Below, one piece after another: positions 33,303-62,747 of a DNA stretch of 64,000 nt; position 1 is the stretch's first letter, and the number at the start of each line of letters is the position of its first letter. The stretch lies in the NCBI RefSeq assembly GCF_000172975.1, contig NZ_ABTR02000001.1, forward strand, positions 310,001 through 374,000, written 5' to 3'. The notes below the pieces were generated by a model. It did not search any database and was not told the DNA's origin. It saw nothing but the letters and a program-made list of their open reading frames with translations. This stretch comes from Dethiosulfovibrio peptidovorans DSM 11002. Its GTDB lineage: Bacteria; Synergistota; Synergistia; Synergistales; Dethiosulfovibrionaceae. The translations under genes and the position numbers were made by a program.

Positions 33303-33304
33303 AC

Positions 33305-34297: not shown

Positions 34298-34496
34298 CTA
34301 CATCCCCGAAACCCCATCCTTTACCAGGTCCTCTATCGTCCGTCGCTTTCCCTTGCCCCGCTCGTCGTCGGGGTCCAGGATTTCCTGTGCGGCCTCGATA
34401 AAGCCCACGAACTGCCAGTAGGTCCAGCGGTGGAACATGGTCTCCTCGTCTATTCCGAAGTTGCGCCTCATATGAAGGCAGAACTTCGGCCATGCC
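34298..34496 (-). repeat. Direct repeat at 3' end of tail gene (intact copy)
   Basis: 199 bp matched by 33057-33254 with six differences, one of them a single-base deletion. The match starts exactly at the stop codon. The 1.04 kb between the copies holds the PIN toxin-antitoxin pair. Confidence 0.9.
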
Positions 34497-35625: not shown

Positions 35626-35641
35626 TCCTATCGCCCCTCTC

Positions 35642-36079: not shown

Positions 36080-36083
36080 CTCG

Positions 36084-36722: not shown

Positions 36723-36737
36723 AGGATCACCTCCCCA

Positions 36738-37055: not shown

Positions 37056-37378
37056 CAGTCGATCTTCACCTCTCCGAAGTTCGCCGAAGCCGCCTTCGGA
37101 GTCCAGGCGTACCCCGCCAGGGGTTTGTCGCCCGTACCGTCCCTGGTCAGGCTTCCGGCAGAGGCGTCCCAGTAAAGAGCCTCTCCGGGAGCGAAGGCCG
37201 TCCCCGTCACGGCGGGCAGCCGGAACACCCCCACCACGGCCAGAACTCCCATTTTCCCAGCCGGTATATCGGTAGTGGCCACTCCGATCCTTCCCCCCAA
37301 AACGACCACATCGTCTACGGACACATCCTCGGTCGGCGTGTAATCCATCCTGCCGCCTATCTCCACGTAAGTTCTCAC
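37055..37378 (-). CDS. DUF2190 capsid cement/decoration protein
   Basis: 107 residues with VSVDDVVVLGGRIGVATTDIPAGKMGVLAVVGVFRLP and GEALYWDASAGSLT, the characteristic pattern of DUF2190 phage decoration proteins. GTG start with GAAGGAGGCGATTC. These stabilise the expanded capsid. It follows the capsid gene and a terminator-like hairpin. Confidence 0.88.
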   Translation of the reverse strand: MRTYVEIGGRMDYTPTEDVSVDDVVVLGGRIGVATTDIPAGKMGVLAVVGVFRLPAVTGTAFAPGEALYWDASAGSLTRDGTGDKPLAGYAWTPKAASANFGEVKID

Positions 37379-37399
37379 ACGAATCGCCTCCTTCGAAAG

Positions 37400-37429
37400 A
37401 AAACCCCGAAGCCTACGCCCCGGGGTTTT
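37400..37429 (-). terminator. Terminator-like hairpin after capsid gene
   Basis: A 9-bp stem (37400-37408 and 37421-37429, AAAACCCCG/CGGGGTTTT) overlaps the end of the capsid gene and ends in a T-rich tract on the minus strand. It may partly attenuate transcription so that capsid mRNA exceeds that of downstream genes. Confidence 0.6.
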
Positions 37430-39467: not shown

Positions 39468-39471
39468 GCAA

Positions 39472-41022: not shown

Positions 41023-41197
41023 GAGGACCTCCTCCCTCTTCCATGGCCAGCATGCCCCGAAGCTCCTTTATCCGTTTCTGTACATGGGACAGGTTGGCCC
41101 TGTCTATCTTCAATCCGTTATCCTCGAAGGCCTGCCCTCCCTCCAGTATCTCGGCCTCGGCCTTTTCGTACATGGCCAGTTCTTCCGTCAAGGTCAT
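41006..41197 (-). CDS. gpW-like head-tail connector protein
   Basis: A 63-residue helical protein (MTLTEELAMYEKAEAEILEGGQAFE, then HVQKRIKELRGML) located between large terminase and portal, exactly where lambda W lies. gpW-type proteins plug the portal after packaging. Confidence 0.75.
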   Translation of the reverse strand: MTLTEELAMYEKAEAEILEGGQAFEDNGLKIDRANLSHVQKRIKELRGMLAMEEGGGPHVVVW

Positions 41198-41201
41198 TAG
41201 A

Positions 41202-43082
41202 TCACCTCCCTTTCCACCATCCCGAACCGCCGCCCTTCAGCCATCCCGCACCTTCGGCGGAATCCACGGAAGAAGACGACGGCCTCATGGCCTCCCGCTC
41301 CTCCTCCGTTGGCATGTAGTGCAGGTTGAGCATTCTGGCCGCCAGAGTCGCATAAACCTCGCAATCCAGAAGGTGGTTGGCGGCGTGTCCGGAGATCTTC
41401 TTCCACTCGTGATGACTGGAACCTGTCCTGGCATCCGTCACCATCACCTTATGCTCCGACGCTATCTGCTCGGCGTATCCTCTCGGGCAGTCCCTGAAAA
41501 GCGACCACGACCCTCTAGTTCCGGGCTCCTTCGTCATACGTCCGAAAATGAAATCCTTCAACAAAGACGTATTCGCCTCCAGCATGGTGAGGCCGTCTTT
41601 CCGGCCCTTGCGGTCCACCACGTGACGGCGGTAATAACCGTCCATCCTCCGAGAGGAGCCCTTGACCGGACCCAGAACATCTCCGTACACCACGCAGGCG
41701 TCGTAAACCTCGTCGGTCCTGTAGCCGCAGTCGACAAGGCAGTAGCCGATCTGACACAGACGACCGTCGCCGAAACGATAGACCGGCTCCACTATATGGG
41801 CCCTCAGACCGTCCTGAAGGTCCGTTTCATTCCAGGTGTCGAACCGGCCGTACTCGATAAGCCAGGACGTCAACCCGGGACCCCAGGCACGCACCACGTA
41901 ATAGGCCTCCGACTTCTGAACGTCCACTCCGGCGGTAATGGCCACCGCCTCGTCCGGCACCTCTCCTCGGGAATAATTTCCGGAAGCCTCCAGAACCTTC
42001 TCCGGCTCCGCCTTGGCCACCGACTCCCTGAAGGGCTCGGCCAGCCAGGAGTTTATGAAGTTCATAAGATCCTCCGGACTGTCTTTCGACCGAAGGAACT
42101 CCGAAGCCACGGCACCGAACGAAATCTGAGGAGAATATATCGAGTTCCAGTGGAAACCTATCCGACGGATCTTCCCCGGCTCGGCTCCTTCCGAAATCCA
42201 TCTGCCTTCGCCAAGCATAAAAGACTTGTCCCGATCCTCTATCCTTCCTTCACAGTGAGGACAGCGATACCACGCCCGATCCTCCACCTGGCGAATTATC
42301 TTCTGTCTGGCGGTGGGATCGTCCTCCTTCCTGAGGGCTTCCGTGAGATCCTCGGGCCACGACACATCCTTGAAGGAGAAGGAAAGGAGCTCTCCGCAAC
42401 GAGGACAGGGAACCTCGTACCGATAGACGACGTCGCACCTCTGCAAAAGCCGCCAGATGTTCCCGGTCTCCAGAGTCGGAGTGGATATGTACATCAGCTT
42501 TCGGTTGGGAAAAGTCTTGGTCCTCTCCTTCCCCAGCTTCAGCGGATTAGCCTCCCGGCCCGAATACCTCGGATACTTGTCGATCTCGTCGAAGATTATG
42601 TATCTCATAGGCATGGCGGAGAGAGCGGCGGGGCTGTTCGCTCCGGTGAGAGCTATATACATTCCCCGAAACTGAAGCTCCAGACGATCCGACTCCCTCT
42701 CCCGAAAGATCCCATTGAATACGTTGCTGGTTTTTATCATGTCCTGAAGCCGGTTTTCGCTGGCCCATTCCGCTATATCCTCGGTGGGATACACCACCAG
42801 AGCCGCCCCGGGATCCTGACAGGCCGTGTAACCCAGACAGTTGTTCGCCGCCTCCGACGCTCCCGCCTGAGCTCCCTTGCACAGAACGATCTCCTCCACT
42901 CCCGGCTCGTTCCAGGCATCCATGATCCCCTTCAGATAGGGCATGTAGGAAGTCCTCCACGGTCCGGGCTTGGCGGCAAGCCTGGGAGTCAGGATCCGAT
43001 AACGGTCCGCCCACTCGCTTACGGTCATCCTTTCCGGAGGCTTGCAGGCCGCAAGCTCCGCGGATGTCCAAGGTACGATCAA
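41202..43082 (-). CDS. Terminase large subunit (gpA family)
   Basis: A 626-residue DNA packaging ATPase/nuclease of the lambda gpA family. It has a deviant Walker A at 68-78 (CKGAQAGASEA), the YIIFDEIDKYPRY Walker B region, two Cys-pair zinc-like sites (CPRCGEL, CPHCEG), and a nuclease part with VDVQKSEAYYVVRAWG. The TTG start overlaps the terS stop (TTGA) and uses GGAGGTGG. Supports cos packaging. Confidence 0.95.
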   Translation of the reverse strand: MIVPWTSAELAACKPPERMTVSEWADRYRILTPRLAAKPGPWRTSYMPYLKGIMDAWNEPGVEEIVLCKGAQAGASEAANNCLGYTACQDPGAALVVYPTEDIAEWASENRLQDMIKTSNVFNGIFRERESDRLELQFRGMYIALTGANSPAALSAMPMRYIIFDEIDKYPRYSGREANPLKLGKERTKTFPNRKLMYISTPTLETGNIWRLLQRCDVVYRYEVPCPRCGELLSFSFKDVSWPEDLTEALRKEDDPTARQKIIRQVEDRAWYRCPHCEGRIEDRDKSFMLGEGRWISEGAEPGKIRRIGFHWNSIYSPQISFGAVASEFLRSKDSPEDLMNFINSWLAEPFRESVAKAEPEKVLEASGNYSRGEVPDEAVAITAGVDVQKSEAYYVVRAWGPGLTSWLIEYGRFDTWNETDLQDGLRAHIVEPVYRFGDGRLCQIGYCLVDCGYRTDEVYDACVVYGDVLGPVKGSSRRMDGYYRRHVVDRKGRKDGLTMLEANTSLLKDFIFGRMTKEPGTRGSWSLFRDCPRGYAEQIASEHKVMVTDARTGSSHHEWKKISGHAANHLLDCEVYATLAARMLNLHYMPTEEEREAMRPSSSSVDSAEGAGWLKGGGSGWWKGR

Positions 43083-43609
43083 CGAACCACCTCCTTTTCC
43101 TTCTTGCCCGCCGGTGTGAAGGGGCCGTCTCTCGAATACCCCTCCCAGAGAATCCGGATCTCCTCTCCCAGAATCTTCTCCATCTCCGTCCGAGACATGC
43201 CCTCCAGCAGAGGAGGCAGCGTATTGACCCAGCCGAACATGTTGGTCCGGCAGATCACCAGACGATCGGCCCAGGCATCCTCAACCTGCTCGAACGGAAT
43301 GTACCGCCCCTCCAGAACCTTAAGACGAATCTCCTCCTGAGCCGCCTTCGCCTTGCGATATTCGGCCTCGGCTTTCAGCTTTACCGCCTGCCAGTTACCG
43401 TCGTTGTCGGGGCTGTCGGTCTCCAGTCCGCACCGCCACCTATAAACCTCCTCCGGATCCCACCACCCTCTACCGGCCTGAGGACAGCCGGACCTCTTCC
43501 ACTCCGACATCGTCTTGGAGGTCACCCCGAAAAAGGCGGCGCATCTTTTGGTGGAGAGCATTATCCTGTCGCCCTCGACCTTGATGTTGGGCTTCGCCAG
43601 GCGGATCAC
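43079..43609 (-). CDS. Terminase small subunit (Nu1-like)
   Basis: DNA-recognition subunit of terminase. A winged-helix N-terminal domain (MLSTKRCAAFFGVTSKTMSEWKRSGCP) matches the lambda Nu1 type, followed by a helical part (AVKLKAEAEYRKAKAAQEEIRLKVLEG). The frame starts with a GTG at 43609 that is squeezed against GGGGG; the internal ATG at 43561 aligns better with the family start, so the real protein may be 160 residues. It should bind the cos region upstream. Confidence 0.85.
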   Translation of the reverse strand: MIRLAKPNIKVEGDRIMLSTKRCAAFFGVTSKTMSEWKRSGCPQAGRGWWDPEEVYRWRCGLETDSPDNDGNWQAVKLKAEAEYRKAKAAQEEIRLKVLEGRYIPFEQVEDAWADRLVICRTNMFGWVNTLPPLLEGMSRTEMEKILGEEIRILWEGYSRDGPFTPAGKKEKEVVR

Positions 43610-44182
43610 CCCCTAAGTAAACTCTAGTTTCCACCCCATTTCGGCGTTTAATGTTCTATGCTTATTGATATTTGATGCTTAACCCTTAACCCCAATTTCG
43701 TATTTTAATCGAGATTTTTCCGTCGGTGCAACCGACCCCTGAGGCCCCCACCCCCCAGGAAGGACCCGTAACGCTTTCCCTTTGCAACTACCGGGCTCAC
43801 GGCTTCTCGAATCGGGCGAAATCGGCCTCTTCGGGATTCTCTACAGCGTAACTCAATGACAGGGAGTAACGTAGAACAACCTCTTTCGGAAACCCGCCCC
43901 ACTACCGGCCTGGATAGCCTTCGAGCGGAAGATTATTAAACTCGAAAACAGGCTTTTTCTCGAAGATAGTCGAAAAATGATTAAAAACGACCGTTTCAGA
44001 CCATCTCATTATTAACCCCCCGACGCCGGGAGGCCTTGCAAACACCGGATTCTTTTCTTCGATTCGGCGCTAATGAGCCCCGAAAACCCCGATGTTTAAC
44101 CCCGACGGCCCGATAGAGGATCGAACACGACGAGCTCGACTCTATGATTGATTTAAAGTGTGGCATTATGAAGCCAAATCAA
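43610..44182. other. Gene-free region, probable cos site
   Basis: 570 bp without a convincing gene between the terminase small subunit and a recombinase, the place of cos in lambda-like genomes. It has four TTAACCC(C) repeats (43680-43686, 43687-43694, 44012-44019, 44096-44103), a GTCGG-TGCAA-CCGAC inverted repeat near 43722-43736 and several TCGAAA stretches. The repeats may be small-terminase binding sites. The cleavage point cannot be fixed from sequence alone. A late promoter may lie here too. Confidence 0.45.
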
Positions 44183-44845
44183 TCACAGGTTCAAGGCCCT
44201 GTAGTGGCCGTCCGTTATCTCTTTCGTGATGCCCAGATAACGCAGAGTAACCTTCTCCGACGAGTGGCCGTACATGGTCTGGATATCCGCCAGAGGCACC
44301 GAATCACCCTCGTAATAGAGCATGTACCCCAGGGTCTTCCTCATGGAGTGGCAGCCGATGGACGTGGTTCGAAGGTTGATCCGCTCCGCCGGAGGCGATG
44401 CCTCGTTGGCTCGTACCGCCGCATCGTTCAGCATCCGGTAGACCTGCATCCTCGATATGGCCCGCATCTCCTCTCCCTTCCGGCGGACGGCGGCCCATAG
44501 GGGCTCGTCTCTAGCCAAGCCCCTGAGATCCTTCCTGTAGCGCAGATAGTCCTTTAAGGCCTCCCGGCTTTTGTCTACGAGGGGGAACGTCCGGATGTTA
44601 CCGGTCTTTCCCTCCCGAAGCCTTATTTCCTCCTCTATCCTGAGACGACAGCTTCTACCGGCCAGGACGTCGTCCACCTTGAGGTCGAGCAGATCTCCGA
44701 TCCGGAGGGCCGAATTGATCCCGAAGACGAAAAGGGCGTAATCCCTCAAAGCCGCCTCCCGGCTGAATCTCCCCGGCCTTTCAAGAATGGCCCGCTTCAT
44801 CCGGTTGATCTGCCTCCTGCCTCGGAAGGGACTCGTGTATTTCAA
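44183..44845 (-). CDS. Second tyrosine recombinase (single catalytic domain)
   Basis: A 220-residue integrase-family protein lacking a separate N-terminal core-binding domain. Catalytic residues appear in NSALRIGDLLDL (Arg I), the LREGKTGN beta-hairpin Lys, HSMRKTLGY (His-x-x-Arg), GHSSEKVT and RYLGITKE (Tyr). TTG start with GGAGGGAG. It sits next to the probable cos region. Similar short recombinases near terminase genes occur in other phages of Firmicutes-like hosts; their role is not settled (resolution of multimers or excision are options). Confidence 0.85.
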   Translation of the reverse strand: MKYTSPFRGRRQINRMKRAILERPGRFSREAALRDYALFVFGINSALRIGDLLDLKVDDVLAGRSCRLRIEEEIRLREGKTGNIRTFPLVDKSREALKDYLRYRKDLRGLARDEPLWAAVRRKGEEMRAISRMQVYRMLNDAAVRANEASPPAERINLRTTSIGCHSMRKTLGYMLYYEGDSVPLADIQTMYGHSSEKVTLRYLGITKEITDGHYRALNL

Positions 44846-44858
44846 TCCCGCTCCCTCC

Positions 44859-45059
44859 TCATCCCTCGCAAGACCTTCTCAACCGCTCGAGGCTCCATCC
44901 CTTCTTCGCCCTGCGCCTGAGCCAGCGCCGCATGAGGCGCACGTCACAGGGTTCGACGATGGTGATGGGATCCGCCATGTAGGGAATGGGATACCTGGCG
45001 TCGGAGACACCGACACGCAACCCGCCCCGTCCTTCCCTGCGACACCAGATAACGTACAT
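44859..45059 (-). CDS. Small phage protein, 66 aa
   Basis: The ATG at 45057-45059 has AGGAGGGGATT. Basic, tryptophan-rich C-terminus (RLMRRWLRRRAKKGWSLERL). Family not recognised. The stop lies 14 bp before the recombinase start, so the two are probably cotranscribed. Confidence 0.55.
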   Translation of the reverse strand: MYVIWCRREGRGGLRVGVSDARYPIPYMADPITIVEPCDVRLMRRWLRRRAKKGWSLERLRRSCEG

Positions 45060-45086
45060 GTCCAATCCCCTCCTATTCCAAGGCAT

Positions 45087-45117
45087 AAAAAATGCCCCGG
45101 TCCGTGTGGACCGAGGC
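45087..45117 (-). terminator. Intrinsic terminator of early operon
   Basis: The stem GCCTCGGTCC/GGACCGGGGC (45094-45103 and 45108-45117, one mismatch) is followed on the minus strand by ATTTTTT. It separates the early and late parts. Confidence 0.75.
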
Positions 45118-45179
45118 TTGCGCTTTTGTAGTTTATAAATCATGATACAGAACAGCCAAACTTCTGGAGGTGAACTAAC

Positions 45180-45461
45180 ATGACTGAGAAACTCTATGAT
45201 TATGATTTCGCCGAGCAACTCGACGACATAGAGGCTATAGAGATCTTCCTCGAAGACGCTTTCGAGACAAACGACCCGGGCTACATAGCTCAAGCCCTCG
45301 GCGTAGTAGCCAGATCCAAGGGCATGGGTGAAATAGCCAAAAAGACCGGACTATCCAGAGAACAGCTCTATCGAAGCCTAAGCGATAAAGGCAACCCCAC
45401 ATTGCAGACCCTTCTCGCCGTCCTGACGGCTTTGAATCTACACCTTAAAGTCACGGCATAG
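45180..45461 (+). CDS. Addiction-module antidote protein (HigA/COG3636-like)
   Basis: 93 residues with a lambda-like HTH at the C-terminus (GEIAKKTGLSREQLYRSLSDKGNPTLQTLLAVLTAL), typical of the putative addiction module antidote family that normally pairs with a RelE/ParE-type toxin. ATG with GGAGGTGAAC. No toxin-like frame lies on either side, so it is an orphan. It is on the strand opposite to its neighbours, so it has its own promoter, probably expressed in the lysogen; it might block a toxin of another plasmid or phage. Confidence 0.8.
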   Translation: MTEKLYDYDFAEQLDDIEAIEIFLEDAFETNDPGYIAQALGVVARSKGMGEIAKKTGLSREQLYRSLSDKGNPTLQTLLAVLTALNLHLKVTA

Positions 45462-45652
45462 TTCAACTATGATCAATAGGAAAGATGCCCCGGCGCTGGG
45501 GCGTCGGGGCTTATCGGGAAATCCCGGGCCTGCACTCCCGGGCTGCTATCTTGTTGTGGCACACTATCAGTATAAGGCCGTTTTCAAATTTATCATCCAC
45601 GTTATCGCAACGATATAGTAACAACTATCATCGCTATAACGTCGTCATAACG

Positions 45653-46153
45653 TCACCATTTCAGAGCTATCTGAAACCCCTTCAGGGCATCCCGGGCTAT
45701 CATCATCGGGATCTCCTGCCTCTTCCTGGTCACGGTGCCGGGTGACATTCCGACCCTGTCGGCCACTCTCTGTAACGGGGACTTCCCGCCCAACCTGGTC
45801 TTACCTGTTACGAAACGGACGTGAAGACAGAAAATCTCCCAGTCCTCCGCAAAGAAGGTCTTTATGGCTCTGGCCGATTCCACTATGGCCGGCCAGCCCG
45901 CTTTCTCTATCACCCCCCGAACCTCGTCCAGCGCTATCGTCTGGTTCAATATCCCGTCGTGATCCGGGTCCCTGTCTATCCTGACACCCGGGTCCTCCGC
46001 CGCTCCGGAGACATAGAGCCTCCGGCGGGTCATTATCTCTATCCATTCGTCGTCGGTCGGGGGCTCGGCCTCGCCAAGCAAAACACTGAAAGCGCAAGGA
46101 TAGTACTCGACCAGGATGTCTATCGCCCTGGCCAACCGTTCCACCTGATCCAC
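45653..46153 (-). CDS. Probable late-gene transcription regulator
   Basis: A 166-residue protein with a C-terminal helix-turn-helix (LQRVADRVGMSPGTVTRKRQEIP) and a hydrophobic middle (ETWEIF-type WEIFCLHVRF). The size, position at the end of the early operon and HTH fit ArpU/RinA-like activators of late phage genes. The GTG start has GAAGGGGG. Two direct ATAACGTC repeats 11 bp apart (45636-45643, 45647-45654) lie at its end and could be a regulatory site. Function inferred by position. Confidence 0.6.
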   Translation of the reverse strand: MDQVERLARAIDILVEYYPCAFSVLLGEAEPPTDDEWIEIMTRRRLYVSGAAEDPGVRIDRDPDHDGILNQTIALDEVRGVIEKAGWPAIVESARAIKTFFAEDWEIFCLHVRFVTGKTRLGGKSPLQRVADRVGMSPGTVTRKRQEIPMMIARDALKGFQIALKW

Positions 46154-52080: not shown

Positions 52081-52102
52081 TACAAATACCGGGGGGTTGG
52101 AG

Positions 52103-52741
52103 ATGTATCAGACAGGGGACAGAATAAAAGAGCTAAGAAAGAGGAAACAGCTAACACAGGACCAATTAGCTCAAAAAATGGGAGTATCTAGAACTACTGT
52201 TGTTTCATGGGAAAAAAGTAAATTTGAACCAGATAGACAAAACACTATTGATTTAGCAGCTGCTCTAGAAACTACGACAAGTTACCTCATGGGTGAAACC
52301 GACGATCCATCGCCACAGAAAGCCGATAGGCAGGTTCCCAGCGGCATACTGGCCCCTATGAGGCAGGAAACCGGGCTCTCACTTGACGAGGCCGCCGCAT
52401 TGATAGATCTCCCGGCGGAGGACCTCGAGCTGATGGAAAAGTACGAGGATCGGGCGGACAGCGTCCTCAAGCAGAAGCTCATCAAAGCCTACGGAAGGTA
52501 CCTTTCGGCCCGGGACGGAGAAACACAGCAGGAAACGGAGAAAAAGAAGGGACAGAGCGAGGAAGACCTCGAGACTCTGATGAAGATGCTGGCGGCGGAG
52601 GATCCGGACATCGTTCTGAAGTTCCGCCACGTGGCCAAGAACGTCACCAGGCTGGCCCCGGAAGACCGGGAGTTCCTGGCAACGCTCTTCAAAGCGGCAC
52701 TGGGCAAGATTACGTTAGAGGATCATACGGACGAATACTGA
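52103..52741 (+). CDS. CI/ImmR-type XRE-family repressor
   Basis: A 212-residue probable prophage repressor. The N-terminal HTH (RIKELRKRKQLTQDQLAQKMGVSRTTVVSWEKSKFEPD) is followed by a helical C-terminal part with no S24 peptidase signature, so it should not self-cleave. This fits ImmR-like repressors, which are cleaved by an ImmA peptidase; ImmA-like genes lie 1.3 and 4.8 kb downstream. A second HTH-like segment (MRQETGLSLDEAAALIDLPAEDLELMEKY) near residue 85-115 is unusual. ATG with GGGG/TTGGAG upstream. Confidence 0.85.
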   Translation: MYQTGDRIKELRKRKQLTQDQLAQKMGVSRTTVVSWEKSKFEPDRQNTIDLAAALETTTSYLMGETDDPSPQKADRQVPSGILAPMRQETGLSLDEAAALIDLPAEDLELMEKYEDRADSVLKQKLIKAYGRYLSARDGETQQETEKKKGQSEEDLETLMKMLAAEDPDIVLKFRHVAKNVTRLAPEDREFLATLFKAALGKITLEDHTDEY

Positions 52742-52785
52742 TCGAGAATTCATCATCAAAGCATTTCTAGGAGGTAGGGTAAAAA

Positions 52786-54009
52786 ATGGGAGCAAACGAC
52801 ATAAAAAATCGTTACAGTCATTTCATCCAACCCGACAATGATCAACTAAAAAATCTCCTTAAAGAAGCAACTATCATACCCGATACAAACATTATTCTAG
52901 AAATATATCGCTCCTCGCCCAAAACCCAAGACGATATACTTGAAATACTTGAAAAAGTAAGTGACAGGCTCTTTTTCCCGGACCAAGTTATTCAGGAATA
53001 CTTGAGCCTTAGGCCTCAAGAGCTTCTTAAAGAGACTCATGTTAGAAAATTTGTAAAAAATTTAAGAGAAGCAAAAAATAAACTTAAAAAAATTTTTGAA
53101 AGTGATAATAACGATCAAGTTAACGTTGGAATCAAAAAAGACTTAGACGAAATAATAGATTTACTTGTTGATAAAATAAAAATAAACGAAAAAAAAGAGC
53201 CCAATTCCTCAGAGGCATTGCGCAATGACCCTATTCTAGAAAAAATAAATGAACTTTCTAGAGGCCACATTGGGGACCCCTTCTCAAAAGAAAGATTAGA
53301 TTGCATCTATAAAGAAGGGGAAGAGCGATACAAAAAAAAGATTCCTCCTGGATACGAAGACCAAAACAAAAAAGAAGCTAATACATATGGAGATCTTGTT
53401 ATATGGGAACAAATCATAGAATATGCAAAATTTAACAAAAAAGATGCAATATTCATAACAAATGATCAAAAAGAAGACTGGTGGTGGAGAAACGACAAAG
53501 AAACAATAGGCCCCAGACATGAACTCAAAAAAGAGTTTAAAGATAGAAGTGGACAAAAGATACACTTCTACAGACTAAACAAGTTCATCGAATTTTCCTC
53601 AAAAGAATTAAGCGTTAAACTTGATTCTGAAACAATAGAGGAATTAGAAGAAAGCACAGAAGAGAATACTGAAGGAAGCTCTAATAAAATGAATTATCAG
53701 TTTCAAGATATAAAGGAAATACAAAAAGCACTTAAGCAGTTAGAAAATCAATCAGTGCTGCTCAAAAACACCCTAGACTTCGATAAACTTAATCGTAATT
53801 TCCAAGCCATGTCAAGTTTAGAAAGCCCTTCTCTAGCAAGCATAGTACAACAGTTTCAACAGTTACAACAGCTAGCCACCCACCCTAGCCTATACGATAC
53901 CTACAGGAATATATGCAAAAACATTAACAAAAAAAATAAGCACGTAATAAGTGGTAAAGATGATATAGAAGACACTGGCAGCACGGATGATACGGATAAC
54001 GAGGAATGA
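52786..54009 (+). CDS. PIN_8 (DUF4935-like) nuclease domain protein
   Basis: A 407-residue AT-rich gene inserted between repressor and ImmA. The N-terminal part has IPDTNIILEIYRSS (first Asp), the middle KKIPPGYEDQNKKEANTYGDLVIWEQIIEYAK, and IFITNDQKEDWWWRND, the pattern of the PIN_8/DUF4935 PIN-like family. The C-terminal part (about 300-407) is an acidic, Gln-rich helical extension. These proteins are frequent in defence islands, possibly as RNases triggered by infection; that role is not established for this one. ATG with GGAGGTAGGG. Confidence 0.8.
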   Translation: MGANDIKNRYSHFIQPDNDQLKNLLKEATIIPDTNIILEIYRSSPKTQDDILEILEKVSDRLFFPDQVIQEYLSLRPQELLKETHVRKFVKNLREAKNKLKKIFESDNNDQVNVGIKKDLDEIIDLLVDKIKINEKKEPNSSEALRNDPILEKINELSRGHIGDPFSKERLDCIYKEGEERYKKKIPPGYEDQNKKEANTYGDLVIWEQIIEYAKFNKKDAIFITNDQKEDWWWRNDKETIGPRHELKKEFKDRSGQKIHFYRLNKFIEFSSKELSVKLDSETIEELEESTEENTEGSSNKMNYQFQDIKEIQKALKQLENQSVLLKNTLDFDKLNRNFQAMSSLESPSLASIVQQFQQLQQLATHPSLYDTYRNICKNINKKNKHVISGKDDIEDTGSTDDTDNEE

Positions 54010-54081
54010 CTCTAATCACTATAGTCAATACAACGATGCGTTTCTGAAACTACGAAGCATCGGAAAGTCGACGGGGCAGGT

Positions 54082-54495
54082 ATGAGAAATGATAGCACCA
54101 AGATCCGGGTCATGGCCCGAACCCTGTTAGGCAAATACGGAATGGAACGGATGATCCCCATTCGGCTGAGCAAACTCTGTCGGAAGCTGGGGATCGAAAT
54201 CTGCCACAGTAAAGCCAGACACATCGACGGCACCCTCTTCATCCACGGAGACCGAAAGATTATCCTTGTCTCCACCGCCCTACCCTACGAACGCCGCCGC
54301 TTCACCGTGGCTCACGAACTGGGACACTACGTCCTCGGCCACCAAGCCGCTTTTTCTCTGGACTCTCCGGAATCGTGGGTTCCTAGAGAGGAACAGGCGG
54401 CCAACGTCTTCGCGGCGGAGCTCCTCATGCCCAAGATGCTCCTGCAGACAAAACACCACGGAGAAAAGCGGAGGGGGAAACAAGAAGATGGATGA
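54082..54495 (+). CDS. ImmA/IrrE-like peptidase, 3'-truncated duplicate
   Basis: 137 residues with the full N-terminal region and HELGH zinc site (FTVAHELGHYVLGHQ), but after LLMPK the sequence departs from the intact copy at 57562 and ends with an unrelated basic tail (TKHHGEKRRGKQEDG). The region 54095-54435 is about 94% identical to 57575-57915 with no gaps. It may be inactive or have altered partner recognition. It precedes the disrupted repeat gene. Confidence 0.8.
   Translation: MRNDSTKIRVMARTLLGKYGMERMIPIRLSKLCRKLGIEICHSKARHIDGTLFIHGDRKIILVSTALPYERRRFTVAHELGHYVLGHQAAFSLDSPESWVPREEQAANVFAAELLMPKMLLQTKHHGEKRRGKQEDG
54095..54435 (+). repeat. Direct repeat, ImmA copy 1
   Basis: 341 bp matching 57575-57915 at a constant offset of 3480 bp with roughly 20 substitutions and no gaps. 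The pair brackets the IS66-disrupted gene and its neighbour. Confidence 0.9.
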
Positions 54496-54580
54496 CGCTA
54501 AAAAACACAACCTGAATGAATTAATAAAAAATATCTTAGAAATATCGCAAAACAATCCAACTCCAACACAAAGGCTCAAG

Positions 54581-54958
54581 AACATCCTCAATAGCATGAG
54601 GCTTCCCACGCAAAGTTACCTAGGCATGGAAGAAGCACTTAAGAACATCAACAATAGCATGAGGCTTCCCACGCAAAGTTACCTAGGCATGGAAGAAGCG
54701 CTTAAGAACATCAACAATAGCATGAGGCTTCCCACGCAAAGTTACCTAGGCATGGAAGAAGCGCTTAAGAACATCAACAATAGCATGAGGCTTCCCACGC
54801 AAAGTTACCTAGGCATGGAAGAAGCGCTTAAGAGCATCAAGAATAGCATGAAATTTCCCATGCAGAATTACCTAGACATGGAGGAAATGTTTAAAAATAT
54901 CAACAATAACATGAGACTCTCCGTGCAAAATTATTTGAAATCAATAGAAACGCCAAAC
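54581..54958 (+). repeat. Six tandem 63-bp repeats in coding sequence
   Basis: Units of 63 bp start at 54581, 54644, 54707, 54770, 54833 and 54896. The first four are nearly identical (21 aa: NSMRLPTQSYLGMEEALKNI plus one); the last two have diverged. Amplification of the first units must be recent. No spacers. Confidence 0.95.
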
Positions 54959-55238
54959 TATTTCCAGTCAGAAAAAACTATAAAAGCAATATTCCAGACT
55001 CAAAAATTAAATTTATTTTTATTTGAAAAAATTGATCCCTACTTGAAAGGTGTAACCATAGGGCCAGACAACTTAAAAATAAAAGATCCAACTGATTTTA
55101 TATGTAGCAAATTAGATAAAAATACCATATTAAACACTGATATAATAAATAACTTCATTGCCCAGACTTCGTCCCCACCCACAAACAGATTGTTACATAT
55201 GCCCAACGCCTCCTCATACATCCCCCCAAAGGTAATTC

Positions 55239-56784
55239 GTAACTATTCAGTCGCCCCATCCAAGAAGAGAATCTGACCATCGAGGGCCATAGACATAGCC
55301 TCGAATATATTGATCGAGTTCTTCTTCGCCGTAATGAGGAACGACATTATTTTGGCATAGTCATTAGCCCCTTCCGAGGTTCGGAAGCAGCCCGATATTT
55401 TAAGCTTCGCTTTGAAGTTGCGAATGTTTCGCTCAGCTTCGTTATTGTCGAAGGGGATCGCAAAGTCCCTGGCATAGAGCAGGATCTCCTCCTTATGGTC
55501 CCTAAATCTCTCCAGGAGGTTCCTGGCCTTGCCTTTTTTGGGCCTGCCTCTTGCCCCCTTTCCAGTAGGTAGAGGGTTTTGAGCCAGACCGGAGGCAAGT
55601 AAGTCATCGAAGGGCTTGTCGATCCTGTAGCGACAGCAATAAGGTGAAAAACGGTCCTTACCGGCCGCGATAAACTCCTTCTTTTTGTGCTGGGCCCATA
55701 CCAGGAGCTTTCTCAGGTCTGAGGCCCATTCCTGTCCGGTGTTTTCGTGGATGGCCCTTAGCTCCCGAATGAGGTGAGCGTTGCAATAGACGTGGTTCAC
55801 GTCAAATCTCTCGTAGGGACGCCAGAAATCATGGACAGCTATCCCTCTGAAACAGGGAAGTATCCCGGAGGCGACCATTCCATCGTAGCCTCGCTTCTTC
55901 TCGACGGAGATGTAGGCGTAGTCACGGTTACAGGCCACATGAGCCCAGCGGAGTCCTTTATCTACTCGGACCCCTGTTTCGTCGAAGTGAGCTAAGGGAA
56001 GGGCTTTGACCTTCTCCTTTATGACCTCCACAGAGGGTGCTACGGAGGATACCGCTCTTTTGACCATGTTGTAGACCGTTCCTGTGGATATAGGAAGGTT
56101 ACAGGCCCCATGAAGTATGTCGTGAATGCGATCGATGGATACGGCTCCTAAGGTATTTAGGACAGAGACCAGAGCTGTAGTCTCCGGACCATACTGGATG
56201 GTGGACTTCACGGTTAGAGGCAGATGACCCCTTATCGTCTCGCTGGACAAGGGACAGGTTCGTTTTATCGCCTGATGTTTTTCCACCGTGGTCACCAGTT
56301 TGGTCTCTATTACGTATCCTGCACCGCAGGAAGCCTTATCGGCGGTTCAGACATCCTTATGTTCGCAGCTCTCGCACTGTTTGGGCAGGTGCTCCACGAT
56401 TTTATCCGGCTCATGGGGAAGGTGAAGACTGCTTCCTTTATGGCCCTTCTGGGCCCCTTTACTCTTGTCGCTTTTCTTACGGGAGCTGGTAGGCTTGGGC
56501 TTTTTATAGCCGTCGCTGGAAGGAGGCTTGGAGCTGGTCTGGCTGTTTTGTTTCAGAATGGCTTCGAGTTCTGCTATACGAGTTTCCTGTCTCTCCTGGT
56601 TCTCGCTGAGGCTCTTGATTATCGCCTTGAGCATCTGGTTTTCCTCGAAGAGCTCTTCGTAGGTGGGCTTCTGAAACATGGATAGGCCTCCCTTCAGATT
56701 TATTCTGATGCCATGATATCACGTTGTAAGAAACTAAGGGACTGCTGATTTAGGAGCTAAATCCGCAGGGGACTGAATAGTTAC
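55239..56784 (-). mobile_element. IS66-like insertion sequence with 8-bp target duplication
   Basis: 1546 bp. Ends share the inverted repeat GTAACTATTCAGTC (left 55239 onward; right in reverse ending at 56784). It is flanked by GGTAATTC at 55231-55238 and 56785-56792, an 8-bp target duplication as IS66-family elements make. It carries one transposase gene interrupted by a stop codon. Confidence 0.92.
55243..56679 (-). pseudogene. IS66-family transposase with in-frame TGA
   Basis: 479 codons in one frame, interrupted by TGA at 56347-56349. Before the stop: a coiled-coil N-terminus and the CESCEHKDV zinc-like part. After it: continuing similarity (TADKASCGAGYVIETK), then the catalytic domain with FDETGVRVDKGLRWAHVA, CNAHLIREL and a final NNEAERNIRNFKAKLKISG. 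An internal GTG near 56295 could express the catalytic half alone. The stop could be a nonsense mutation; readthrough cannot be excluded. Confidence 0.88.
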
Positions 56785-57047
56785 GGTAATTCAAGTTATC
56801 CTTTGTGCTCTTTTATTGTTTACTTTTGCATATTACACATCAGGTTGGAACGAGGAATACGTCAATAAAGGCATAACTGAAGTAGACCTTTTACTGGCTA
56901 AACAGTTACAAAAAAAATCGCAAAAAAATAAAAATACTCACCAATTGCTACTACACGAAGAAGTTATAAATTCAGGAGAAAGCCAAACTCGAAAAAACAT
57001 TCTGTCAACATGCGCGGCCATGGGCCTCATACCGGACGACTAAAACA

Positions 57048-57497
57048 ATGGGGTTATCTTTTTTTAAATTTATAAAAAAAATTTCGTGGCTTATTGAACT
57101 GGGAATATTAATTATTCAAGCATTAATTTTATTTAGACAACAAAGCATACTAGAAAACCAATTCAGCTTATCTATGCACAATAGTAAACAATCACAAGAA
57201 AATATTTTTGTTATTCAACAAATAAAATGTTTCAATGAAATATGTGAAATAATCGCCTTTATACTTGTCCCAGACAATGACAACATTTATACAGAAAGGA
57301 AGTTGACGCGAATAACATTAAAAAACCAATACTTTATACCAAAAAAAGCATATGAAGAAATAAACAATATAATAGAAGAGCTGAAAAACAACAATCAAAA
57401 AGATAAGTTAAATAAAAAAATACTAGATCATTTTATAAAAATGCAGGATTATTTTTTAGAAAATATCGAAAGCAAGCTAAAATATCGTACACGTTAG
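57048..57497 (+). CDS. AT-rich membrane protein, 149 aa
   Basis: Starts 4 bp after the stop of the disrupted repeat gene, so the two formed an operon. One N-terminal transmembrane helix (WLIELGILIIQALILF) then a helical, lysine/asparagine-rich domain (SKQSQENIFVIQQIKCFNEICEII; ELKNNNQKDKLNKKILDHFIKMQDYFLENI). No family recognised. Possibly the second component of a two-gene membrane system between the two ImmA copies. Confidence 0.65.
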   Translation: MGLSFFKFIKKISWLIELGILIIQALILFRQQSILENQFSLSMHNSKQSQENIFVIQQIKCFNEICEIIAFILVPDNDNIYTERKLTRITLKNQYFIPKKAYEEINNIIEELKNNNQKDKLNKKILDHFIKMQDYFLENIESKLKYRTR

Positions 57498-57561
57498 ACA
57501 GACGAGTACTGATAGGGAGGCGATAGAGGTAAGTTCCAAAGACCAAGCGCAGAAGGATGGA

Positions 57562-58023
57562 ATGACAAACAACGGTACCAGGATCCGGGTGATGGCCCGA
57601 ACCCTGCTAGGCAAGTACGGAATGGAACGCATGATCCCCATTCGGCTGAGCAAACTCTGTCGGAAGTTGGAGATCGAAATCTGCCACAGTAAAGCCAGAC
57701 ACATCGACGGCACTCTCTTCATTCACGGAGAACGAAAGATCATCCTTGTCTCCACCGCCCTACCCTACGAACGCCGCCGCTTCACCGTGGCTCACGAACT
57801 GGGACATTATGTCCTCGGCCACCAAGCCGCCTTCTCTCTGGACTCTCCCGAGTCGTGGGCTCCAAGAGAGGAACAGGCGGCCAACGTCTTCGCAGCGGAA
57901 CTCCTAATGCCCAAGACGGCTCTTCAAGCAATCCACTACAAGCACGACACAAAGCAACTGGCGCAGATATTCGGAGTAAGCCCTTTGGCTATGCAGATAC
58001 GGCTGGAGGAAATTGGGGAATAA
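57562..58023 (+). CDS. ImmA/IrrE family metallopeptidase (intact copy)
   Basis: 153 residues with the HELGH zinc motif in FTVAHELGHYVLGHQ and the downstream Glu-containing REEQAANVFAAELLMPK, followed by the C-terminal QLAQIFGVSPLAMQIRLEEIG. ImmA-type proteases cleave ImmR-like repressors to allow prophage induction. It would act on the repressor at 52103. An upstream truncated duplicate exists. ATG with GAAGGATGG. Confidence 0.9.
   Translation: MTNNGTRIRVMARTLLGKYGMERMIPIRLSKLCRKLEIEICHSKARHIDGTLFIHGERKIILVSTALPYERRRFTVAHELGHYVLGHQAAFSLDSPESWAPREEQAANVFAAELLMPKTALQAIHYKHDTKQLAQIFGVSPLAMQIRLEEIGE
57575..57915 (+). repeat. Direct repeat, ImmA copy 2
   Basis: Partner of 54095-54435 (offset 3480 bp, about 94% identical). 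Homologous recombination between them would delete the intervening cargo and leave one intact ImmA. Confidence 0.9.
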
Positions 58024-58054: not shown

Positions 58055-58153
58055 ATGGATTTCATCGATAAGATAAGAAACATAGCTAGCAATATTCCAT
58101 TTGGGAACAATGACGTCATTTTCAGAGGGATTTGCCATGAAAAAAACGATTAA
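58055..58153 (+). CDS. Short ORF, 32 aa, possible FRG-domain remnant
   Basis: ATG with AAAGGAAG. MDFIDKIRNIASNIP, then NNDVIFRGI, which recalls the start of FRG domains (F/W-R-G). It overlaps the start of the SIR2-like gene and stops at 58153. It could be a truncated gene or a leader peptide controlling translation of the next gene. Confidence 0.35.
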   Translation: MDFIDKIRNIASNIPFGNNDVIFRGICHEKND

Positions 58154-59192
58154 AGAATTTGATGAATGTCTAGAAATAGCAAAAAAATCTTCAAGCCAAT
58201 CAAAACCTAGTATCTTGCTTGGGAACGGATTTAGCATGGAGCTTAATAAATCCATTTTTTCATATAGTGCCCTCCAAAAGGTAGCCATAGAAAGTCTAGA
58301 GGGGACAGACAAAGAAAAACTAGAGGAATTATTCAAAAACGCTAATACTCAAGACTTTGAAATAATACTAAAAAAAATCAGAGATGCCATAGAAATAACG
58401 AAAATAATCTGTGCCTCCGACAGCTCCACTCTAAGAAGCCTTGAAAAAACATATGAGATGGTAAAACAATGTCTAATAAAGACAATATCAAAATGCCATC
58501 CCGACAAGCCGAATGACATAGACGACTGGAGATATGATTCATGCCAAAGATTCATAGCAAACTTCGATACTATATATACCATAAATTACGACCTAACTTT
58601 ATATTGGGCTTTAATGCATAATTACGATAAAGAAAACAGCGACAATAACTTTATAAAACATTACCCTGATGGCTTTACGAATCCATCTACGACAGAAGAC
58701 TACGTTATATGGGATATCAAACGAGGGAAATCACCTAGCTTGATATACCTACATGGGGCTCTTCATATTTTTGATGATGACGGCATAATAAAAAAGTTCA
58801 CTTGGAATAGAAGCGGCAGATCGTTAAAAAGCCAAATAACAGATCAGCTCGAAAGAAACACATTTCCCATTTTTATCTCAGAGGGGACAACAAGCGACAA
58901 AAAGGCCAGAATAAACGGAAGCAGCATCTTGTCAAAAGGATATCGCAGTCTGTCGAACAAAGGCGGGAATTTATTCACCTTTGGAATATCTTTTTCTGAT
59001 AACGACGATCATTTACTTGAGGCCATTTTTAATTCTCATGTAAAAAATTTATTTATCGGAGTCTACGGGGGTAATATCGACACTAACTTGAGCAATAAAA
59101 TCCAACGTTCCGTCTCTCAACTTCAGGCTCCAGGAAAGACACCTCCCCAAATACATTATTACAATACATGTACGGCAAAGGCATGGGGCTAA
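58137..59192 (+). CDS. SIR2-like protein of the DUF4917 family
   Basis: 351 residues from the ATG at 58137 (ribosome binding site AGAGGGA). Motifs: ILLGNGFSMELN (nucleotide-binding start of SIR2-like folds), FDTIYTINYDLTLYWALM, IYLHGALHIF, and FPIFISEGTTSDKKARI. These match the DUF4917 branch of SIR2-like proteins. Several SIR2-like proteins in defence systems are NADases that trigger abortive infection; this is inferred for the present gene. AT-rich, located between ImmA and the MORC-TIR gene. Confidence 0.78.
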   Translation: MKKTIKEFDECLEIAKKSSSQSKPSILLGNGFSMELNKSIFSYSALQKVAIESLEGTDKEKLEELFKNANTQDFEIILKKIRDAIEITKIICASDSSTLRSLEKTYEMVKQCLIKTISKCHPDKPNDIDDWRYDSCQRFIANFDTIYTINYDLTLYWALMHNYDKENSDNNFIKHYPDGFTNPSTTEDYVIWDIKRGKSPSLIYLHGALHIFDDDGIIKKFTWNRSGRSLKSQITDQLERNTFPIFISEGTTSDKKARINGSSILSKGYRSLSNKGGNLFTFGISFSDNDDHLLEAIFNSHVKNLFIGVYGGNIDTNLSNKIQRSVSQLQAPGKTPPQIHYYNTCTAKAWG

Positions 59193-59233: not shown

Positions 59234-61120
59234 ATGGCAAATGACGTAACGAAAGAATACAAGCTCAATGTCGATCCACGGATTCTGGAGTTATTAGGGC
59301 CTAATCTATATACGAATATCTACTACGTATTGGCGGAATTGATCGCCAACGCCTACGATGCGGATGCCAAGAACGTTTATATAATCGCAGGTAGGGACGA
59401 CATTAGAGTCGAGGATGACGGACACGGAATGTCCTACTCTTCAGGTGATATTTCAAAATATTTGAACGTAGCTGGTGTATCCAGAACCAATGAAGAGGAT
59501 TCTTTCACTAAGTCGGGGGATCGACGGAAAATGGGCCGAAAAGGTGTGGGAAAATTGGCGGCTTTATCGGTTTCCGAGAATGTCGATGTAATGACAATCG
59601 CCGACGGGGAAAAATCCGGATTCGTCCTCTCACGAAGACCAGAAGAAGGAAACCGACTAAAGGCCATTCCAGAAACTGGCATCATATTCGAGAATATCAT
59701 CGAACATGGTACCGCCATCATCATGCGAGCCCCTCAATATCGACTTCACAAGACTCTCGAAGCAATCAAAAGGAATCTTCTAAAGATATTTCCCCTGGTG
59801 AATGCCGATTTCCGGATACATATCGTTCGCGGGACCGAGTCAGAGATCATTGACGATTTCGACAAGAGCATCATGAACGAGCTAGGCACACTCATTACTC
59901 TCGGAGAGGATTATTCGTCCTTGTGCAATCTGGTTCCAGATTTATATCCTGATAGGCGATCGGAATTGATCACTGCAAAGGAAGCAGAAATCATTCCTCT
60001 GACCATGAAGGATAATACAGGAACCGAACATGATTATTACTTAGATATAAAGGGCTGGATAGGCACTTATAAAACGACCAGAGGCAAAAAAGTCGAGGCT
60101 ACAGATTTCCCGGACAACTTCATTTCTTTGTTTGCAAATAAAAAAATGGGAGAATTTAACGTCCTTCCGATGATAGGACAAAATAAATTAAGTGAAGTTT
60201 ATGTGGTCGGGCAGCTTCATGTCGATCTTTTCGAATTAAGCGAACTACCCGATATGGCATTGAGCAATAGGCAGGGTTACAAGTCGGATGATCCACGCTA
60301 CGAAGCCGTTCTAACGCATATTAGAGATAAATTACTCTCCGACATACTAAAAAAAAGAAACCTGTTTGCCGATCTAGGCAAGGCGAAAAAAAAGACAAAA
60401 CGTCTTGATGCGCAACGAAGAGATGAAGAAGAATTACGACACGCAGTAGATGCATTTCGTAGAAATGCCAGTGAAAACGCTGCTCAAAATGTCTCAAAGT
60501 TATTCTCTGGGGTTGACACCGACGCAATCCAAAAAGTAATAGCAAAGTCAATCAGTGACAACAGCCCCGATTTGGGATTGAAAAGTATCGTAGACTCGCA
60601 GAAAAAGAAAATACTGATAAGCCAGACGTATCCCGACAAACCTTTCGCAGATATCGTATATCAAATGCTCCTGTTCAACAACGTTCCTGCCGACGATATT
60701 CTTTACACCAACTGCGACGATGAAATTTGCCGCGTACCAGAAGGGGCCAGCGTATACGGTTATCTCAGAGATTTTTTCGTGGAAAGTTATTCCAATCAAA
60801 AAATTTATGTCATCTTCATTACCAGTCAAAATACGAAGCTATCTTGGGGAGCCATCACCGAAGTGGGTGCATCTTGGATCACGAAAATCGATCACAAAAT
60901 TTTCAACATTCCCCCCTTCAGACCAGAACATCCTCTTGATGACGAAAGTCAATGGCAGAGCACCAACAGAGAGGAAAAAACAGGCAAGTTATGGATGACA
61001 TCTCTTAGTTCAGATATTTTTTGCCAAAAAATCGAACATGTCTGCCACTCTTTGGGGTATCATGAAAACACACGAAAAAAGAACGAAGGGTACCTGAAAA
61101 CACTAATCTCCATCAGGTAA
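59234..61120 (+). CDS. MORC/Hsp90-like GHKL ATPase with TIR-like C-terminal domain
   Basis: 628 residues. The N-terminal GHKL ATPase has ELIANAYDADAKNVYI (Asn of the Bergerat fold), RVEDDGHGMS, and GRKGVGKLAAL. An S5-like second domain (about 200-370) is followed by a basic coiled-coil (KAKKKTKRLDAQRRDEEEL). From about residue 455 the sequence KKKILISQTYPDKPFADIVYQ...VYVIFITSQNTKLSWGAITEVGASW resembles a TIR-type NADase domain with the Glu near 'SW....E.GA.W'. Prokaryotic MORC homologues linked to cytosine methylases and Vsr-like nucleases were described as components of restriction systems; the following two genes fit this. The TIR part is an inference. Confidence 0.72.
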   Translation: MANDVTKEYKLNVDPRILELLGPNLYTNIYYVLAELIANAYDADAKNVYIIAGRDDIRVEDDGHGMSYSSGDISKYLNVAGVSRTNEEDSFTKSGDRRKMGRKGVGKLAALSVSENVDVMTIADGEKSGFVLSRRPEEGNRLKAIPETGIIFENIIEHGTAIIMRAPQYRLHKTLEAIKRNLLKIFPLVNADFRIHIVRGTESEIIDDFDKSIMNELGTLITLGEDYSSLCNLVPDLYPDRRSELITAKEAEIIPLTMKDNTGTEHDYYLDIKGWIGTYKTTRGKKVEATDFPDNFISLFANKKMGEFNVLPMIGQNKLSEVYVVGQLHVDLFELSELPDMALSNRQGYKSDDPRYEAVLTHIRDKLLSDILKKRNLFADLGKAKKKTKRLDAQRRDEEELRHAVDAFRRNASENAAQNVSKLFSGVDTDAIQKVIAKSISDNSPDLGLKSIVDSQKKKILISQTYPDKPFADIVYQMLLFNNVPADDILYTNCDDEICRVPEGASVYGYLRDFFVESYSNQKIYVIFITSQNTKLSWGAITEVGASWITKIDHKIFNIPPFRPEHPLDDESQWQSTNREEKTGKLWMTSLSSDIFCQKIEHVCHSLGYHENTRKKNEGYLKTLISIR

Positions 61121-61158
61121 CCTTAAAAACACACTATTTTACACAAGAAGCTTATAAC

Positions 61159-61593
61159 ATGACTGATACGGTTTCGACAAAAAAACGAAAAGTCATAATG
61201 TCCAGAGTCCGGGGCAAGGATACCAAACCTGAAATGGCCGTTCGGCGATGGCTTCACGCTCACGGTTTTCGATTCAGACTCCACAGGAGAGATTTACCGG
61301 GATCCCCGGATATAGTCCTCCCGAAGTATCGTACTGTAATCTTCGTGAATGGTTGTTTTTGGCACAGACATCGGGGATGTCCGAGAACGACGACGCCGAA
61401 AACTCACAAGGACTTCTGGGAGAAAAAATTTCAAGCCAACATATCCAGAGACATCGCAAACGAAGATCGACTTAGATGCTTGGGATGGCGTGTCCTGATA
61501 GTTTGGGAATGTCGAACGAAACGAGACGAGGATATTGAGGATGCCCTCAACGATCTCATCGCCTCGAAGAATTCCATCGATTCCGACATATAA
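61159..61593 (+). CDS. vsr: Very short patch repair (Vsr) endonuclease
   Basis: 144 residues with MSRVRGKDTKPEMAVRRWLHAHGF, DLPGSPDIVLP (catalytic Asp), FVNGCFWHRHRGCP, and KKFQANISRDIANEDRLRCLGW, all standard Vsr motifs. Vsr nicks T:G mismatches arising from 5-methylcytosine deamination; in R-M clusters, Vsr-like nucleases can serve as restriction enzymes. Directly upstream of the matching methyltransferase. Confidence 0.94.
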   Translation: MTDTVSTKKRKVIMSRVRGKDTKPEMAVRRWLHAHGFRFRLHRRDLPGSPDIVLPKYRTVIFVNGCFWHRHRGCPRTTTPKTHKDFWEKKFQANISRDIANEDRLRCLGWRVLIVWECRTKRDEDIEDALNDLIASKNSIDSDI

Positions 61594-61694
61594 GACGACC
61601 TCGACGTATCAGCTCGAATATGCCATAATCTTGACGAGGCCGACATGACCCGACCGGACTCGTATTTTTTAGGATATGGCGTGGTGATGATCTC

Positions 61695-62747
61695 ATGAGG
61701 AAAGGGATATCGGTAGTGGATCTTTTTTGCGGAGCCGGAGGCTTGACGCACGGATTCGTCATGGAAGGATTTAGAGTCCTGGCAGGCGTGGACACGGACA
61801 AAGCCTGCAAGTATCCCTTCGAAAAAAACAATGCCGGAGCCGAATTCATCGCTTCCGACGTTAGAGATCTGTCGCCCGAGGATTTGGCGAAGCTATATCC
61901 CGAAGGAGACATGAAGGTTCTCGTAGGTTGCGCTCCTTGTCAGCCCTTCTCCAGCTACACGAACGGGGATAGAAAGAAAGACGGTAAGTGGAGGCTGTTG
62001 TACACCTTCGCCGATCTGATAAAGGGAGTGGACCCCGAGATTTTTTCCATGGAGAACGTTCCCGACCTTGTCAGAAGGTTCGGCAAGGACGGCGTATACT
62101 CCGATTTCGTAGAGTCTCTTTCTGATAGATACGAGATAAGCGCCTATGTGGTCCATTGTCCCGAATACGGCATTCCTCAAAGGCGAACCCGTCTGGTCCT
62201 TTTCGGATCGAAGAGGGGGAAGGTCGAACTCATACCTCCTAGCCACGACCGAAGCTCTTTCAGAACGGTAAGAGACGCCATAGGGCATCTTCCACCGTTG
62301 TCCGCCGGAGAGGTGGATCGTAAGGATCCTCTACATAGAGCGCCTAGATTATCGGAAACCAATCTGGAACGTATCAAGCAATCGAAACCGGGAGGAACTT
62401 GGCAGGATTGGGACGAAGATCTGGTAGCGAAATGCCACAGAAAAAAGACGGGGACATCCTATCTCGCGGTATATGGACGTATGCGGTGGGACGAACCGGC
62501 TCCCACCATGACGACTCTTTGCTTCGGATACGGAAACGGAAGGTTCGGTCATCCGGACCAAGATCGGGCAATCTCGTTGAGAGAGGCAGCCATATTCCAG
62601 ACGTTTCCAGAAGACTACTCCTTCGTTCCTCCAGGAAGGCCTTATTATTTCAAGGTTCTGGGTAGGCTGATAGGCAATGCTGTTCCCGTGGACTTAGGGC
62701 GATTGGTCGCCAAGAGCATCGCAAAACACCTGGAAGAAACCGCTTGA
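61695..62747 (+). CDS. DNA (cytosine-5-)-methyltransferase
   Basis: 350 residues with all main C5-MTase motifs: I DLFCGAGGLTHGF, IV GCAPCQPFS with the catalytic Cys, VI MENVPDLV, VIII PQRRTRLVLFG, IX and X RLIGNAVPVDLG. The short target recognition region (about 200-280) gives no clear specificity. It protects host and phage DNA at its sites and partners the Vsr and MORC-TIR genes. Last gene before attR. Confidence 0.95.
   Translation: MRKGISVVDLFCGAGGLTHGFVMEGFRVLAGVDTDKACKYPFEKNNAGAEFIASDVRDLSPEDLAKLYPEGDMKVLVGCAPCQPFSSYTNGDRKKDGKWRLLYTFADLIKGVDPEIFSMENVPDLVRRFGKDGVYSDFVESLSDRYEISAYVVHCPEYGIPQRRTRLVLFGSKRGKVELIPPSHDRSSFRTVRDAIGHLPPLSAGEVDRKDPLHRAPRLSETNLERIKQSKPGGTWQDWDEDLVAKCHRKKTGTSYLAVYGRMRWDEPAPTMTTLCFGYGNGRFGHPDQDRAISLREAAIFQTFPEDYSFVPPGRPYYFKVLGRLIGNAVPVDLGRLVAKSIAKHLEETA

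What the first reader, a model, noticed from the sequence alone, without database searches (positions are those of the whole stretch)
54488..57497. Two-gene membrane system with a 21-residue repeat protein, unrecognised families
The restored first gene encodes six 21-residue repeats, then a helical domain and a transmembrane helix; the second gene follows after 4 bp and also has one N-terminal transmembrane helix. Both are AT-rich, unlike the phage, and lie in the lysogeny region where cargo collects. The repeat tract is recently expanded, a feature of proteins under selection to change binding or length.
Basis: partly seen in the sequence, partly recalled or inferred. Interest (0 to 1): 0.72.

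Follow-up and report, generated by a model that had tools for sequence, protein, structure and literature searches.

The report
Broken membrane gene pair, prophage hotspot
A prophage in a Synergistota bacterium carries a two-gene membrane cassette without known relatives, one gene broken by a jumping element, at a spot where related prophages keep anti-phage defence genes; it may be an unrecognised defence system, but this copy is probably dead.

Summary
Gene 1 has six in-frame 21-residue repeats (63 bp each; copies 2 and 3 identical in DNA) and a C-proximal membrane helix. It is cut by an IS66-family element (55239-56784) with 8-bp target duplications. Gene 2 starts 4 bp after gene 1 and has one N-terminal membrane helix. 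Both are AT-rich.

The context is new. Against a sister prophage, the pair lies in a 4755-bp insertion (52743-57497) exactly between a repressor (XRE) gene and an ImmA/IrrE gene. The insertion is bracketed by a duplicated repressor tail and contains a truncated ImmA copy. Eight such loci in the genus carry different cargo; seven have PADLOC defence matches, including PD-Lambda-1/SNIPE, PD-Lambda-5 and restriction-modification. Ten prophage body proteins gave none.

Best reading: disrupted remains of a lysogen-expressed, membrane-anchored anti-phage or exclusion cassette in a defence hotspot. Location and disruption are shown; function is inferred from position and anatomy and is untested. Interest is moderate: orphan families in a good context, but one broken copy and no mechanism shown.

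The parts
52097..52741 (+). XRE-family repressor-like gene; its 3' tail marks the left edge of the insertion
   Evidence: XRE matches; homology to G108 runs to 52742
52727..52742 (+). XRE tail, left copy of a 16-bp repeat (14 of 16 identical to the right copy)
52743..57497 (+). 4755-bp insertion between XRE and ImmA relative to sister prophage G108
   Evidence: blastn blocks window 52254-52742 and 57498-58017 against adjacent G108 sequence
52786..54009 (+). PIN_8-domain protein gene, AT-rich cargo
   Evidence: PF18476 E 8e-61; GC 0.34
54082..54495 (+). ImmA/IrrE copy A, lacking the C-terminal part; its frame overlaps the gene 1 start
   Evidence: 92% identical to copy B over 54079-54436
54488..55238 (+). 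Gene 1, N piece: repeat protein, cytoplasmic part
   Evidence: open frame, ribosome site
54590..54967 (+). Six 63-bp repeats (21 residues each)
55239..56784 (-). IS66-family insertion sequence, transposase with a premature in-frame stop
   Evidence: PF03050 E 2.6e-39; GTAACTATTCAGTC ends and GGTAATTC duplication
56785..57043 (+). Gene 1, C piece: membrane helix and 65-residue tail
   Evidence: open frame in the same phase; hydropathy 1.89
57048..57497 (+). Gene 2: 149 aa, one N-terminal membrane helix, all-helical prediction
57498..57513 (+). XRE tail, right copy of the 16-bp repeat, directly after the gene 2 stop codon
57562..58023 (+). ImmA/IrrE copy B, full length
   Evidence: PF06114 E 2.7e-23
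58101..59192 (+). DUF4917 gene (PADLOC candidate PDC-S21), neighbouring cargo
   Evidence: PF16263 E 6.5e-64; PDC-S21 E 7.8e-99
59234..62747 (+). BbrUII/HgiDII-like ATPase/restriction protein, Vsr and cytosine methyltransferase genes, neighbouring cargo
   Evidence: same group in L027

Best explanation
This is the disrupted remains of a two-gene, membrane-anchored accessory cassette acquired by a prophage at a cargo hotspot between its XRE repressor gene and its ImmA/IrrE gene. When intact it was most likely an anti-phage or superinfection-exclusion pair expressed in the lysogen. Gene 1 would place a repeat-built, probably helical domain in the cytoplasm under the inner membrane, where it senses or blocks an incoming phage or its DNA; the small membrane protein of gene 2 would be its partner or effector. 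Shown: position, the insertion relative to a sister prophage, IS disruption, orphan status, one membrane helix each, defence genes at equivalent sites. Inferred: co-transcription from the repressor side, partnership, topology, defence role. Not shown: any activity.
For: Exact insertion between XRE and ImmA. Seven of eight XRE-ImmA loci in the genus have PADLOC matches in their cargo: PD-Lambda-1 E 1e-118, PDC-M63A; PD-Lambda-5 A and B, PDC-M59A, R-M genes; PDC-S21 and R-M genes in the window; ten prophage body proteins have none. PD-Lambda-1/SNIPE is itself a membrane-anchored injection-stage defence (PMC13190303). All genes from XRE to the methyltransferase are on one strand with short gaps. 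One membrane helix in each protein. Gene 1 and gene 2 are 4 bp apart.
Against: No family match and no relative. Not all hotspot cargo is defence: L029 has no match. Methyltransferase matches are generic. No promoter above chance. The copy is broken, so selection to keep it is not evident.
Confidence: 0.42

Rival explanations
1. The pair is a non-defence lysogenic-conversion cassette: two small membrane proteins that alter the envelope or host physiology, or simply tolerated foreign DNA in a permissive prophage site.
For: No match to any defence model; several neighbouring cargo genes at equivalent sites are unclassified membrane proteins; the IS insertion was tolerated.
Against: Named defence systems dominate the recognisable cargo at this site.
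Confidence: 0.3
2. The two genes are not a functional unit but neighbours brought together by cargo stacking.
For: The site shows stacked, chimeric junctions (two ImmA copies, duplicated XRE tail); gene 2 is much more AT-rich than gene 1 (0.25 against 0.37).
Against: The 4-bp gap, with no obvious ribosome site for gene 2, suggests translational coupling; both have a single membrane helix.
Confidence: 0.15
3. The pair is a toxin-antitoxin or abortive-infection membrane effector with its regulator, keeping the prophage or killing infected cells.
For: Two small adjacent genes in a lysogeny region; one small single-pass membrane protein.
Against: Gene 1 is far larger than usual antitoxins and is itself membrane-anchored; the weak AbiEi match (14.1 bits against a cut-off of 150) is not credible.
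Confidence: 0.1

Closest known systems
Prophage-encoded antiviral hotspots (P2- and P4-like elements; Rousset 2022, PMC9122126)
   Same: Conserved flanking phage genes with variable, often AT-rich cargo that includes known anti-phage systems
   Different: Here the flanks are an XRE gene and an ImmA/IrrE gene of Synergistota prophages, with partial ImmA duplications at the cargo junctions
PD-Lambda-1 / SNIPE (PMC13190303)
   Same: Single-pass inner-membrane protein with its working part in the cytoplasm; a homologue occupies the ImmA-adjacent site in sister prophage G108
   Different: No DUF4041 and no GIY-YIG nuclease in either protein; two genes instead of one; 21-residue repeats
Lambda RexAB exclusion (own knowledge)
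   Same: Two genes behind the repressor gene in the presumed lysogenic transcription unit, membrane-linked
   Different: No sequence similarity reported by any library; RexB is multi-pass, both proteins here are single-pass

Membership tests
Prophage defence hotspot | Same flanking genes with different cargo in related elements | tested here: met
   Eight XRE-ImmA loci in five genomes, cargo all different
Prophage defence hotspot | Known defence systems among the cargo, not in the phage body | tested here: met
   Seven of eight loci with PADLOC matches; ten body proteins without
Prophage defence hotspot | This cargo protects against phage | not testable with these tools
   Needs infection assays; copy is broken
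[quoted passage not shown]
   No Pfam or PADLOC match in any of the three pieces
PD-Lambda-1 / SNIPE | Single membrane anchor with cytoplasmic main part | tested here: inconclusive
   One hydrophobic helix each; topology only inferred
RexAB-type exclusion | Sequence similarity to RexA or RexB | tested here: not met
   No such match in Pfam, PADLOC, PHROGs or NCBIfam at E up to 1
Phage tape measure protein (repeat tract) | Profile match above the curated cut-off | tested here: not met
   TMP_3 20.3 bits against 41; TIGR01760 14.3 against 28.8; resident tape measure E 0.04
IS66 family (the insertion) | IS66 transposase, matching inverted ends, 8-bp target duplication | tested here: met

The most novel reading that the evidence does not exclude
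The pair is a new kind of injection-stage defence. Gene 1's 21-residue repeat rod, in steps of exactly three heptads, resembles or binds tape measure proteins at the inner membrane; repeat number sets its length or target range, and gene 2 is the membrane effector. Weak support: subthreshold matches to several tape measure profiles, the resident tape measure protein as best of 155 local proteins, and a SNIPE homologue (which targets tape measure proteins) at the same site in a sister prophage.
Probability: 0.07. Interest if true: 0.8.

Novelty: new member of a known kind. Interest (0 to 1): 0.38.

Why it matters
Prophage hotspots are productive places to find new immune systems. The XRE-ImmA junction in these Synergistota prophages appears to be such a hotspot, with PD-Lambda-1/SNIPE, PD-Lambda-5 and R-M genes beside several unclassified membrane proteins, including this pair. 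If the pair defends, it would be a family without known relatives and with a length-variable repeat domain. The site itself gives a short list of testable candidates.

Tried and rejected
Homologue searches that found nothing but self: tblastn of gene 2 and the gene 1 N piece in plasmids and phages and of the gene 1 C piece in phages; peptide-pattern scans of 84,980 species genomes for gene 2 and the N piece (sensitive to close relatives only); IMG/VR (only the same prophage); 188 genomes of the phylum (hits at E about 0.002 are 25-32% identical stretches, mostly in 523-aa open frames, judged chance). Pfam EAD9 on gene 2 (15.7 bits, cut-off 25) and Nre_C on gene 1 (25.1, cut-off 27) rejected as below threshold on repetitive or helical sequence. 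AbiEi match rejected. Foldseek with the gene 2 model (pLDDT 68, no alignment) gave nothing at E 0.001 or better in PDB or viral models. The gene 1 model (pLDDT 37) was too poor to search. Tape measure similarity: 1 of 300 position-shuffled repeats scored as high, but E is 0.04 in a local panel, so it stays a lead. Heptad pattern: 9% of shuffled units match it, not significant. No similarity between gene 1 and the neighbouring PIN_8 protein.

Full report
What was checked. The window lies in a 2,576,359-base genome in three contigs. The same prophage is in IMG/VR as UViG 2501533205_000002. From size and contig number I take it to be Dethiosulfovibrio peptidovorans, phylum Synergistota (own knowledge; the genome paper PMC3035263 was found, but I did not read its figures). 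The 3' end of a tRNA-Ser at about 16260 is repeated at about 62818, so the prophage runs from the integrase next to the tRNA to about 62.9 kb, and the finding lies inside it, near the right end.

The sequence itself. Gene 1 starts at 54488 behind a GGAGG-type ribosome site and overlaps the stop of a truncated ImmA frame by 8 bp. It has six 63-bp in-frame repeats. Copies 2 and 3 are identical, copy 1 has one silent change, copy 4 two changed residues, copies 5 and 6 are diverged, so the tract has expanded or been homogenised recently. The unit is exactly three heptads long, with five of six a/d positions hydrophobic, but 9% of shuffled units do as well. The IS66-family element at 55239-56784 has an 8-bp target duplication and a premature in-frame stop in its own transposase. 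Past it the C piece of gene 1 opens in the same frame with one membrane helix; gene 2 follows after 4 bp with one N-terminal membrane helix. As it stands, gene 1 would give a repeat protein without its anchor.

No relatives. All three pieces were compared with Pfam, PADLOC, PHROGs and NCBIfam, gene 2 and the gene 1 N piece with PDB sequences, and all three with IMG/VR. Phage and plasmid records, 188 genomes of the phylum and peptide-pattern scans of species genomes were also searched. Nothing credible was found apart from the same prophage.

Where it sits. The ImmA/IrrE gene has DNA relatives in five genomes of the genus, the own one included. I read eight XRE-ImmA loci. In G108 the XRE and ImmA genes are adjacent; there the window aligns up to 52742 on one side and from 57498 on the other, with 16 bp of the XRE tail shared by both alignments. 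So the window has a 4755-bp insertion, 52743-57497, holding the PIN_8 gene, ImmA copy A (5' part only) and the pair. It ends exactly at the gene 2 stop codon, followed by a second, slightly different XRE tail (14 of 16 bases). Because the two tails differ, this looks like recombination between related prophages and not a fresh target duplication (inference). G108 shows a similar chimera: after its full ImmA and a PD-Lambda-1 gene comes a 3' fragment of a second ImmA, then an AT-rich membrane protein gene. Cargo thus seems to be stacked and exchanged around ImmA.

What the site carries. PADLOC gives PD-Lambda-1 at E 1e-118 in G108, PDC-M63A in the second prophage of the own genome and an HNH protein in G113; PD-Lambda-5 A (1.6e-135) and B and PDC-M59A in G111; methyltransferase and restriction genes in G113; a methyltransferase and a UvrD-like helicase in G110; PDC-S21, Vsr and methyltransferase in the window, with a BbrUII/HgiDII-like protein (E 3e-63, below its curated cut-off). 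Seven of eight loci have such matches. Ten proteins from the prophage body have none. Methyltransferase matches are generic, so the named systems are the stronger part of this evidence. PD-Lambda-1 is SNIPE, which cuts phage DNA at the membrane during injection and associates with tape measure proteins (PMC13190303). Prophage hotspots of this kind are known (PMC9122126).

How it may work. The order XRE, PIN_8, ImmA copy A, gene 1, gene 2, ImmA, DUF4917, R-M is all on one strand, so expression in the lysogen from the repressor side is plausible, though no promoter stands out above chance. I take a membrane-level anti-phage or exclusion role as most likely: position and anatomy support it, but nothing tests it. 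The tape measure lead is recorded only as the most novel reading: several tape measure profiles match below cut-off and the resident tape measure protein is the best of 155 local proteins, at E 0.04.

Verdict. It is a new member of a known kind, hotspot cargo, with unproven function.

Noticed in passing
L025 (G108:C1) 2651-4880: A PD-Lambda-1/SNIPE homologue sits directly after a full ImmA gene and is followed by a 3' ImmA fragment and an AT-rich 650-aa protein with C-terminal membrane helices and no family match.
   Followed up: partly
window 54079-54436 and 57559-58023: Two ImmA/IrrE copies, 92% identical, bracket the pair; copy A lacks the C-terminal part. Partial ImmA duplication also marks cargo in G108.
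   Followed up: yes
L028 7679-8422 and L030 7069-8001: Unclassified membrane proteins directly beside ImmA in two further sister prophages; they look alike in their N-terminal part by eye.
   Followed up: no
L029 (G111:C12) 5260-7687: Another orphan pair after ImmA, the second protein with a C-terminal membrane helix, and a membrane protein with a zinc-finger-like motif before ImmA; no PADLOC or Pfam match for the pair.
   Followed up: no
window 59234-62747: BbrUII/HgiDII-like ATPase protein, Vsr and cytosine methyltransferase group, 92% identical in DNA to L027 over the first gene.
   Followed up: partly
window 55239-56784: IS66-family element whose transposase carries a premature in-frame stop; partial relatives elsewhere in the genome.
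   Followed up: partly
G000:C1 about 31000-46000 (L024): A second related prophage end in the same genome with an XRE-ImmA site and a DUF6932 (PDC-M63A) gene as cargo.
   Followed up: partly
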